From Owenia fusiformis (lineage: Eukaryota > Annelida > Polychaeta > Sabellida > Oweniidae): a stretch of DNA of 64,000 bases. Below, in pieces: positions 52,450-55,400 of the stretch. Where the stretch lies: contig CAIIXF020000010.1 in NCBI GenBank assembly GCA_903813345.2, positions 9,542,349 through 9,606,348 of the forward strand. The letters are read 5' to 3'. Numbering within the stretch: position 1 is the stretch's first letter; each line of letters starts with the position of its first letter. A program made the translations under genes and the position numbers. The notes under the pieces are model-generated. The model made no database searches, was not told where the DNA came from, and was given only the letters and a program-made list of their open reading frames with translations.

Positions 52450-55400
52450 CTGCAAACACAAGACAAAAACCGTTATTCCAGACACTTTACACAAAGACAT
52501 GATCGTATTTTGCAAATTGTAAAACCATCGCTTGTTTTTGCGGTTTTGTGTACCTTTGTGCTATACACACTAGTGCTATTTTTATGTTAATATTTTTCGG
52601 GTAATGAAAAATAAAATAAAACAATAACATGTAAAACCGACAAAACCAGACGAAGGCTTTATAAAATGCTCACTATAAAAATAACACAAACATTTAAGAT
52701 AATAGTCCGGAACATTCATGCTTTGTGCATCATGTACATCTAAATTATGCCATTGATCAAAATGTTAAAGAAACCACAAAATCCCAGCGATGATTTTACT
52801 TGTTGCAAAATATAATGTTGCTCTGTTGTTCAATCTGGATGGCTGGACAGGGCTAAAAAATGAACCGACGCAACCCTAAGCATTCTCCCGCAAAACAGGC
52901 CCGATACACTAACCATGCACCAGCCTACCGAGCCCCGACCACAGGCTACAACGGGTAAGTGTATATGGCCATAAGGTCCTGATCCAGTATCTTGTCAGAT
53001 ACACAATGGCGATGGGTTTGCAACGGTTAACCTATCAGTAGATACTTGACTGTGATACTTAAAAATGTTACACAGTGCATTGTGTATGTGACAATGGATC
53101 ATTCCTTTCAAGTGGCATGCTTTGGTTTGCGTTTGACTTACGTTTAGGTTGCGGTTGATGGTACATTGCCTGTATCTGGTTCATGCTACTCATATTGTTT
53201 GTAATTCTAGATGCATCCGTACCACGTCCTAAGTCTAAAAATAACATATATTTTAAATGTCAGAATATCGTCAATTTTAACAATATATTAGTCGATGTTA
53301 ATTTGAAATTATAAACTACTTCATGAAGAATTTATACATAAGAAATTTTATTTTATCATCATCATCAATGAATAGCCAATCTAAATTTTTATATGAACAG
53401 TACACAGAGTGACGTTTATGTTTTATACACAAGCATTCGAAAAAATCATTTTTAAACTGAAATACAAGGTGTATTCACAATCTTCTACCGAATTTAACAC
53501 TTTCTCACGCTTGGTAAGAACAGGAATAAATTATGCCGACGTGATCATCCATCATTTTACTTTCACTTTTTAAGCAGCAATTTTGTGGTAGCACCCCAGG
53601 GTTACGGCTAATGATCGCATAACTGTATATAGCAACTAGATGTGCCACATTCCCGACCGCAACCCCTTGCGTACAAGTATGAATTTGTAACATTACCGGT
53701 TAACTTGCAAAAATTAGATTATATACTTCACAAAAGTCATTAGTTCAATTTAATATTTTCACAATTTTCTGAATGATAATAAATGTGTTATATTTAACGG
53801 ATTCGACTCCCTCAAACCAAAGATTTCTTACTGTGTGATGCCCTCATTAATATTTCGACTAATGAGCTATTGCAGATTTACAATTATGACAATCAGGGAT
53901 TTCCTACTTGACTCAGTCTGGCAATTTTCATGTCTCTACACCAGTACCCCATCTAGCGGTGAGTTTGGAAAAGATTCGAGTCTTCTGGTTTGATAAAATA
54001 TTCGGACATAGAACACTGGAATCTGAAAGGATTCAGACCTTGAATCGCTTCCGTTTTTGAAGGTATTGTATCAAAACACAATGGTTTCGTTCATACAGAA
54101 AATAGTCTATAAAAATAGTTGAATTGAATGCCTCTGTATTGCTGCATTCATAGGAATATGACTTACAAAATACTTATAACTGAAAAGATGTTGATATAAC
54201 CGACTGTCATTTCACATTCGGCAGTGTTATGGCGTTCTTCTATAAAGCAAATGATGGAATATTTGAATCGGGGATGGATTGATGATAACTTCAAAGTCAC
54301 TATTTAATATGTCATGGAGGGGTTAGTAATATGATAGTAAATATGTTTTATTATTGTTTTTATTAGCTCTAAGGGTAAGGAAGGTTGTAAATGAGTGAAT
54401 TCACTCGTCTTTGTTAAATTCGTGTGGTGCCCGCTCGTGTTGGAGAAATATTTGCAACGCGTTAAGATATGCCTGTTTTAATCTGTAGTTTTGTCTGCAA
54501 GTGATTTTCTAAAGGTGTTATCAGACCTGTTCCTAGATGTTACCCAGAAGTGATCTCCACTTACTGCTACAAGCTGCCAAATTTCCATTCATAGTCTGAC
54601 ATAACTTCTCTCTGAATAAACCCTTACTATCACAGCGCATTCACAGGTTTTAAAATAATAAATACGCAAAGATGATACCGGGAATACTGTTCAAAACACA
54701 ACCAAGTGTAATGCGGTAAAAACCAAGCAGGTTGTTTCTAATTAAGATACATTAACTAGTGTATGTTCCAAAGAAATGTATATAGGTGTAAGGGTACCTA
54801 GTGTTTTGAGGTTGAACCTTGGATATAGATTGTGAAATGTTGTGTTAACCTTTAACAAGGCCCAACACAAAGCGTGAACATTATGAAACGATAGACATAG
54901 CATTACATAAAGGGAATGCATCCTTTTTGAAGAGTAGTGTTAAGGGTAGCAAAGACAAAGGACAAAAATAACAAATGCATATTAAAAAATGGCATCATCA
55001 CGCAGATGAGAATTGAGACAAGTTGATTCTAAAAGGCGAAAGTCAATAGTAGATTGCTAGTACGACACAAGGATGGGTTAAAACATGAAATATAAGGTCT
55101 TCTGAGACCCACAAAGCCAAAGATGCAATATCAATATCTAGTAAAACGAACTAATGCATCTTATACACAACCTTAATGTCAATTATTCTGAGCATATTAT
55201 ATTTCCCATGTCAGCAAACGACATAAAATCTTGCCTTATGAATTGAATAAATTGTAGTGTTGTCACAAACCCTTTGTATATATCCAGAAAGTAGTGAAAT
55301 TGGACCAAGGGATTTATATATGATATTCTGGTGTTTTTGAATGATATTGCCAAAGCCTTATCTTTCGAAGGCAGCCCTCATATTGCACACGATGCGCCTT

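What the first reader, a model, noticed from the sequence alone, without database searches (positions are those of the whole stretch)
53142..53234. Hidden cassette exon would insert 31 residues into the NR2F ligand-binding domain
Seen in sequence: acceptor, 93 open bases and a consensus donor on the coding strand, both phases equal to the host intron, base composition richer than the flanks. COUP-TF ligand-binding domains are otherwise nearly invariant across animals (established). The insert would fall in the helix 8-9 loop on the surface, near the helix 9-10 region used for dimer contacts, so an isoform with altered partner choice or co-repressor binding is possible (inference).
Basis: partly seen in the sequence, partly recalled or inferred. 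Interest (0 to 1): 0.72.

Follow-up and report, generated by a model that had tools for sequence, protein, structure and literature searches.

The report
Possible extra COUP-TF receptor exon
A 93-base stretch inside the last intron of an animal COUP-TF receptor gene looks like an optional exon that would add 31 amino acids at the receptor's dimer surface, but a chance look-alike is about as likely, and no RNA or related species could be checked here.

Summary
The sequence feature is real and its coordinates are exact. The minus strand carries a three-exon COUP-TF/NR2F gene. Inside its 7,838-nt phase-1 last intron lies an open 93-nt stretch (53234-53142) with a plausible acceptor, a GTAAGT donor and matching phases. 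It would insert 31 residues between ligand-binding-domain helices 8 and 9. With a twin that uses an acceptor 6 nt further in, it is the best-scoring phase-compatible cassette in the intron. A 79-nt AG-free run and branch-point-like motifs precede it.

It is not far from chance. Splice score, phase and open frame alone give 0.19 (lengths 60-240) to 0.47 (30-300) such cassettes per intron-sized control. The coding-like composition is not frame-specific and is shared with the downstream flank, so 'richer than the flanks' is half right. No animal genomes or reads were searchable, so use and conservation are untested.

Context: cockroach Seven-up-A replaces the last 90 residues of its domain, the number exon 3 encodes here, so alternative splicing at this boundary has a likely precedent. 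No AATAAA/ATTAAA follows the candidate within the intron, which favours a cassette over such a terminal exon. My odds are even between a real, perhaps minor, cassette exon and a pseudoexon.

The parts
61985..62483 (-). COUP-TF exon 1, coding part (Met start chosen by me), A/B domain and C4 zinc-finger DNA-binding domain; donor AAG|GTAACA after 61985
60288..60806 (-). COUP-TF exon 2, hinge and LBD up to helix 8 (ends ...KAIVLFSS plus the first base of the next codon); donor CTG|GTAAGT
52450..60287 (-). intron 2, 7,838 nt, phase 1, host of the candidate exon
53142..53234 (-). candidate cassette exon, 93 nt, phase 1 at both ends; would insert 31 residues [31 protein letters not shown] after the split Asp
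53142..53228 (-). variant of the candidate using a second acceptor 6 nt downstream (87 nt, 29 residues, same phase), scored slightly higher
53235..53334 (-). upstream intron end: 79 nt free of AG before the acceptor AG; branch-point-like CTGAC and TTGAC with A at -26 and -37; 60% pyrimidine in the 20 nt before the AG
52175..52449 (-). COUP-TF exon 3 with stop codon: rest of the split Asp codon plus 90 residues, helices 9 to 12

Best explanation
The stretch is an optional, in-frame cassette exon of this COUP-TF/NR2F gene, probably included in only part of the transcripts. When skipped, exon 2 joins exon 3 and gives the ordinary receptor (supported by homology). When included, 31 mostly polar residues (richest in Gln, Ser, Asn and Met) lengthen the loop between LBD helices 8 and 9 without disturbing the frame (shown for the sequence, inferred for the RNA). 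Because that loop is part of the NR2F-type dimer interface, the long form would most likely weaken or re-select LBD dimerisation, and so shift the balance between homodimers and RXR-type heterodimers, rather than change the pocket or helix 12 (inference). Steps shown: gene, intron, phases, open frame, splice-like signals, insertion point. Steps inferred: use of the exon, structure of the insert, effect on dimers.
For: With its 6-nt-shorter twin it is the best phase-compatible open pair in the intron (ranks 1-2 of 12 pairs of 30-300 nt; 1-2 of 5 of 60-240 nt; both lists limited to acceptors of 0 and donors of 4 bits or more). The donor ranks 4th of 431 GT sites. The acceptor AG is preceded by 79 nt without AG, a gap reached by 9 of 348 in this intron, with CTGAC/TTGAC motifs and 60% pyrimidine against 65% and 70% at the gene's two conserved acceptors. 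No pair with both sites at least as strong was found in 83,394 control bases. None of these bases, and 0.5% of 400 simulations, hold a pair as good in summed splice and codon score. No detected repeat pair covers it; one weak 29-nt ungapped match (72%) clips its first 6 bases. No AATAAA/ATTAAA lies between its read-through stop and exon 3. Precedents: scallop RXR has a 60-bp cassette exon giving +20 aa in the T-box (PMC3774650, passages); mud crab RXR has a 42-aa LBD insert isoform (PMC4806290, passages); cockroach Svp-A and Svp-B differ by the last 90 residues (PMC5225475, passages), the number exon 3 encodes here.
Against: Splice score, phase and open frame alone give 0.19 (60-240 nt) to 0.47 (30-300 nt) such candidates per intron-sized control. 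In one search the 16 chunks of 7,832 nt (8 per strand, 30-300 nt) held 4, 19, 0, 0, 1, 1, 1, 1 and 8, 2, 0, 1, 1, 0, 4, 0 pairs; the large values lie over the lectin and COUP-TF genes, and 6 of the other 10 chunks (sense COUP-TF chunks left out) still held one. The acceptor is only 27th of 346 AG sites. The codon score is not best in the true frame, whereas the true frame is best in 273 of 399 windows of the real exons (those exons also trained the score). In the adjoining patch 52840-53141, 10 of 51 open sense windows and 17 of 31 open antisense windows score as well. In the scallop paper all mollusc RXR isoforms then known differed only in the C domain, not the LBD (PMC3774650); whether this animal is a mollusc is unknown. 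Twenty-nine residues of the insert match nothing in Pfam or PDB sequences, as expected for either reading. No RNA or relative was available.
Confidence: 0.44

Rival explanations
1. Pseudoexon: a chance pairing of an acceptor-like and a donor-like site around a stop-free stretch in a long AT-rich intron, never or hardly spliced.
For: 0.19 to 0.47 expected per intron-sized control from splice score, phase and open frame, depending on the length range; at least one in 16.75% of 400 simulations and 23.5% of 200 with looser lengths. Codon signal not frame-specific and shared with the downstream patch. 13.6% of 89,203 non-coding 93-nt windows are open in the needed frame (this set includes intron 2 itself).
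Against: Joint splice and codon score is rare (0 of 83,394 control bases, 0.5% of 400 simulations). The AG-free run (9 of 348 gaps as long) and the branch-point-like motifs were not part of that score.
Confidence: 0.44
2. Alternative terminal exon, as in the cockroach Svp-A form: transcripts spliced to 53234 run past the donor, end after a 55-residue tail (stop codon at about 53070) and lack helices 9 to 12.
For: Cockroach BgSvp-A replaces the last 90 LBD residues by 21 unrelated ones and lacks the last four helices (PMC5225475, passages); exon 3 here encodes 90 residues plus part of a split codon. The frame stays open for 24 codons from the donor on.
Against: No AATAAA or ATTAAA on the coding strand between the stop and exon 3 (other poly(A) signals were not counted). 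A GTAAGT donor would be needless.
Confidence: 0.05
3. The patch about 52850-53240 is a non-coding intronic element (enhancer or old mobile element) whose raised GC content explains the open frame.
For: GC is raised across the patch, not only in the stretch. A hairpin lies just downstream of the donor (z -2.83; stretch chosen because of its inverted repeat).
Against: No Rfam match up to E 1 and no repeat copy of the stretch in the window. Does not predict matched phases or splice signals.
Confidence: 0.07

Closest known systems
Seven-up isoforms BgSvp-A / BgSvp-B of Blattella germanica (PMC5225475)
   Same: An NR2F gene whose protein isoforms part where the last 90 residues begin, matching the exon 2/exon 3 boundary here by residue count.
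   Different: There the alternative end replaces helices 9-12 by 21 residues; here helices 9-12 would be kept and 31 residues inserted. Shown by cDNA there, predicted here.
Scallop Chlamys farreri RXR T-box isoforms (PMC3774650)
   Same: A small exon (60 bp, +20 aa) optionally inserted in frame in an NR2-subfamily receptor of an invertebrate, proposed to change dimer choice.
   Different: Insert in the DNA-binding-domain T-box, not in the LBD; RXR, not COUP-TF; shown by cDNA.
Crustacean RXR LBD-insert isoforms, e.g. mud crab SpRXR1, +42 aa (PMC4806290)
   Same: Optional insertion of tens of residues inside the LBD of an NR2-subfamily receptor.
   Different: Different receptor, position of the insert not checked by me, shown by cDNA.
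Bryozoan RXR2 with 17-21 aa insertions (PMC7225927)
   Same: Extra residues inside the LBD of an invertebrate NR2-subfamily receptor, with a measured effect of deleting them in one species.
   Different: Carried by a separate gene copy and said to lie within the ligand pocket, not an optional exon in the helix 8-9 loop.
Human NR2F2 (COUP-TFII) transcript variants (PMC10768475)
   Same: Isoforms of an NR2F gene.
   Different: They arise from alternative first exons, not from an LBD insert.

Membership tests
NR2F (COUP-TF / Seven-up) nuclear receptor gene | LBD of NR2F type | tested here: met
   Best PDB sequence match of both LBD exons is COUP-TFII 3cjw_A, E 9.9e-90 and 3.3e-52; Pfam PF00104 in both
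NR2F (COUP-TF / Seven-up) nuclear receptor gene | C4 zinc-finger DNA-binding domain upstream | tested here: met
   Pfam PF00105 zf-C4, E 2.9e-31, residues 97-165 of exon 1
NR2F (COUP-TF / Seven-up) nuclear receptor gene | place inside the NR2F group in a phylogeny | not tested
   no tree was built; assignment rests on best sequence match
Alternative cassette exon | acceptor and donor in the right order and strand | tested here: met
Alternative cassette exon | length a multiple of 3 and phases equal to the host intron, no stop | tested here: met
Alternative cassette exon | frame-specific coding signal | tested here: inconclusive
   codon score coding-like (higher than 96% of open non-coding windows) but equal in other frames
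Alternative cassette exon | spliced transcripts that include it | not testable with these tools
   no reads, ESTs or eukaryotic collections on hand
Alternative cassette exon | conservation of frame and splice sites in relatives | not testable with these tools
   Viral-contig scans with exons 2 and 3 found no relative; genome contigs with exon 3 gave one weak partial bacterial match; no animal collection
Svp-A-type alternative terminal exon | divergence at the junction before helix 9 | tested here: met
   last 90 residues in PMC5225475, exon 3 = 90 residues plus part of a split codon; boundary matched by count only, the cockroach sequence was not aligned
Svp-A-type alternative terminal exon | stop followed by a poly(A) signal | tested here: not met
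   stop present, no AATAAA/ATTAAA before exon 3; other signals not counted

The most novel reading that the evidence does not exclude
A regulated COUP-TF isoform exists in this lineage in which a cassette exon lengthens the helix 8-9 loop by 29 or 31 residues, switching the receptor's LBD dimer choice. That would be a form of NR2F diversity that my ten library searches did not show, in a domain otherwise nearly invariant in animals.
Probability: 0.2. Interest if true: 0.6.

Novelty: new variant of a known kind. Interest (0 to 1): 0.35.

Why it matters
COUP-TFs act as homodimers and by tying up RXR-type partners, and their ligand-binding domain hardly changes among animals (established knowledge, in part recalled). 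A spliced insert placed in the dimer-interface loop would give a natural test of how dimer choice sets COUP-TF function. It would also suggest that the last NR2F intron is a repeated site of isoform making: a truncating form in cockroach, an inserting form here. If it is a pseudoexon, it is an ordinary example of how often long introns imitate exons.

Tried and rejected
Conservation test: exon 2 and exon 3 LBD peptides were scanned in viral contigs, with no relative. Exon 3 in genome contigs gave one weak partial Streptomyces match (residues 27-60, 47% identity), not pursued. The insert peptide was too short for the locus search; 29 residues of it found nothing in Pfam or in PDB sequences at E up to 10. 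No whole genome is held for the window.

Mobile-element origin: intron 2 was compared with the window; no hit overlaps the stretch. A weak match (61%, E 0.004) of the AT-rich upstream flank 53238-53374 to 40123-40261 and a 70% inverted pair 52478-52557/52760-52842 both miss it. A 29-nt ungapped 72% match at 53229-53257 clips its first 6 bases (which searched 52450-53600 only).

RNA: no Rfam match up to E 1 in 52450-53700. Fold of exon plus downstream hairpin: z -0.98, 32 of 200 shuffles as good.

Terminal-exon reading: less likely for want of canonical poly(A) signals. A structure prediction of the spliced isoform was not attempted, because the tool takes unspliced translations of the window.

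Papers whose passages gave nothing on this point: PMC3084292, PMC1847479, PMC8715095 (the terms isoform, splic and exon do not occur in it).

Weaknesses of my statistics: the splice matrices were written from recalled general metazoan frequencies, not trained on this organism. Thresholds were set at the candidate's own values, and the length range 60-240 was chosen, so rarity is flattered; with 30-300 nt the control holds 5 instead of 2, with 80-110 nt none. The control stretches (15300-43900 and 44100-52100 on both strands, intron 2 antisense, intron 1 on both strands) were assumed non-coding. The codon score was trained on the exons it was checked against; the non-coding windows include intron 2 and thus the candidate itself.

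Full report
What is there. The minus strand of 62483-52175 carries a three-exon COUP-TF/NR2F gene. Its coding exons are 62483-61985, 60806-60288 and 52449-52175; joined, they translate without an internal stop into a complete receptor (the start Met is my choice). Exon 1 holds the C4 zinc-finger domain (PF00105, E 2.9e-31). Both LBD exons have human COUP-TFII (3cjw_A) as best solved relative and hit PF00104. Intron 2 (60287-52450, 7,838 nt, phase 1) splits an Asp codon. The exon 2 match ends at residue 153 and the exon 3 match begins at residue 154 of 3cjw_A. This is the loop between helices 8 and 9 (helix naming recalled; it agrees with PMC5225475, where loss of the last 90 residues removes the last four helices). 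The species was not identified. The left part of the window encodes C-type lectin and WSC domains.

The candidate. Within intron 2, 53234-53142 is 93 nt, open in the required frame, with phase 1 at both ends, acceptor ATTTTTAG|A and donor AAC|GTAAGT. With it, the receptor frame stays open and gains 31 residues. A second acceptor 6 nt further in gives an 87-nt, 29-residue version of slightly higher score. The acceptor AG is preceded by 79 nt without AG, a gap reached by 9 of 348 in the intron. CTGAC and TTGAC motifs put an A at -26 and -37, and 60% of the last 20 nt before the AG are pyrimidines (65% and 70% at the gene's two conserved acceptors). GTAAGT occurs four times on the sense strand of the intron: at the exon 2 donor, here, and twice elsewhere; 9 lie in 73,600 bases of both strands of 15300-52100.

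Is it more than chance? With recalled metazoan splice matrices the donor ranks 4 of 431 and the acceptor 27 of 346; the pair and its twin are the two best of 12 phase-compatible open pairs of 30-300 nt (acceptor 0 and donor 4 bits or more). In seven control stretches (83,394 bases) pairs as good occur at 2 distinct donors for 60-240 nt (0.19 per intron length), 5 for 30-300 nt (0.47) and none for 80-110 nt. In whole-window chunks of 7,832 nt (30-300 nt) the plus strand gave 4, 19, 0, 0, 1, 1, 1, 1 and the minus strand 8, 2, 0, 1, 1, 0, 4, 0; the large values lie over lectin and COUP-TF genes, the 2 holds the candidate, and 6 of the 10 chunks away from these hold one pair. Simulations hold at least one in 16.75% of 400 (60-240 nt) and 23.5% of 200 (30-300 nt); with both sites at least as strong, 9.5% of 200 and none in the controls. 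Requiring also the candidate's codon score leaves none in the controls and 0.5% of 400 simulations.

That extra signal should be discounted. The codon score is as high in other frames (0.113 in frame; 0.085 and 0.165), while the true frame scores best in 273 of 399 real coding windows. The adjoining patch 52840-53141 yields 10 of 51 open sense and 17 of 31 open antisense windows that score as well; the AT-rich upstream flank 53235-53600 yields 0 of 30. Among 12,156 open non-coding windows 3.7% score as high, and 6.4% of 3,015 GC-matched ones.

What kind of thing. I weigh a real cassette exon (0.44) equally against a pseudoexon (0.44), with small shares for an alternative terminal exon and for a non-coding element. 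The terminal-exon rival is worth naming: in the cockroach, Svp-A and Svp-B are identical except that the last 90 residues of the LBD are replaced by 21 unrelated ones (PMC5225475, passages; the discussion once says N-terminal end, against its own results), and exon 3 here encodes 90 residues plus part of the split codon. So alternative splicing at what is probably this same boundary has been shown in another NR2F gene; knock-down of Svp-A alone left reproduction normal there. Here, however, no AATAAA or ATTAAA lies on the coding strand between the read-through stop (about 53070) and exon 3, against 16 such hexamers elsewhere in the intron, which speaks for a cassette if the site is used at all.

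How it would work. The H8-H9 loop is part of the NR2F6 homodimer interface, together with H7, H9, H10 and the H9-H10 loop (PMC12455566, passage). In receptors that pair with RXR, a conserved arginine of this loop links the core to the dimer interface (PMC8092661, passage). A 31-residue polar insert there would most simply hinder or re-select dimerisation while leaving pocket and helix 12 in place. This is inference; no model was computed.

Literature. Invertebrate NR2-subfamily receptors with in-frame inserts are known: scallop RXR (60-bp exon, +20 aa in the T-box; PMC3774650, passages), mud crab RXR (+42 aa in the LBD; PMC4806290, passages) and bryozoan RXR2 gene copies (17-21 aa; PMC7225927, passages). 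The scallop paper adds that mollusc RXR isoforms then known differed only in the C domain. Human NR2F2 variants use alternative first exons (PMC10768475, passages). In the oyster (PMC4070562) and snail/limpet (PMC4388693) surveys the passages found for COUP-TF/NR2F mention no isoform. Ten searches of the library showed me no COUP-TF isoform with an LBD insert. That covers open PMC papers only; four of the lists were cut (20 of 30, 10 of 97, 12 of 14 and 10 of 15 shown), and I read listings and passages, no whole paper. A sea-urchin COUP-TF variant and the fly svp type 2 form are recalled, not seen.

Limits. No eukaryotic genome, transcriptome or read set was searchable.

Noticed in passing
52984-53104 (minus strand): Imperfect hairpin about 40-160 nt downstream of the candidate's donor (17-nt arms 94% complementary); folds better than shuffles (z -2.83, 2 of 200 as good; stretch chosen because of the repeat).
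   Followed up: partly
52478-52842: About 80-nt inverted pair, 70% identical, in intron 2 near exon 3: possibly an old fold-back element.
   Followed up: no
4367-12832 (plus strand): A WSC domain and C-type lectin domains (4 of 5 lectin-region frames sent matched Lectin_C); mannose-receptor-like is my recalled label.
   Followed up: no
5671-6054: Two 191-bp tandem copies 98% alike, a recent-looking local duplication between the WSC and lectin frames.
   Followed up: no
43962-44052 (minus strand): tRNA-Thr(AGT) prediction 91 nt long, longer than usual for a tRNA without intron.
   Followed up: no
56504-56623 (minus strand): Next distinct phase-compatible open cassette of 60-240 nt in the same intron, 120 nt, weaker donor (4.92 bits).
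   Followed up: no
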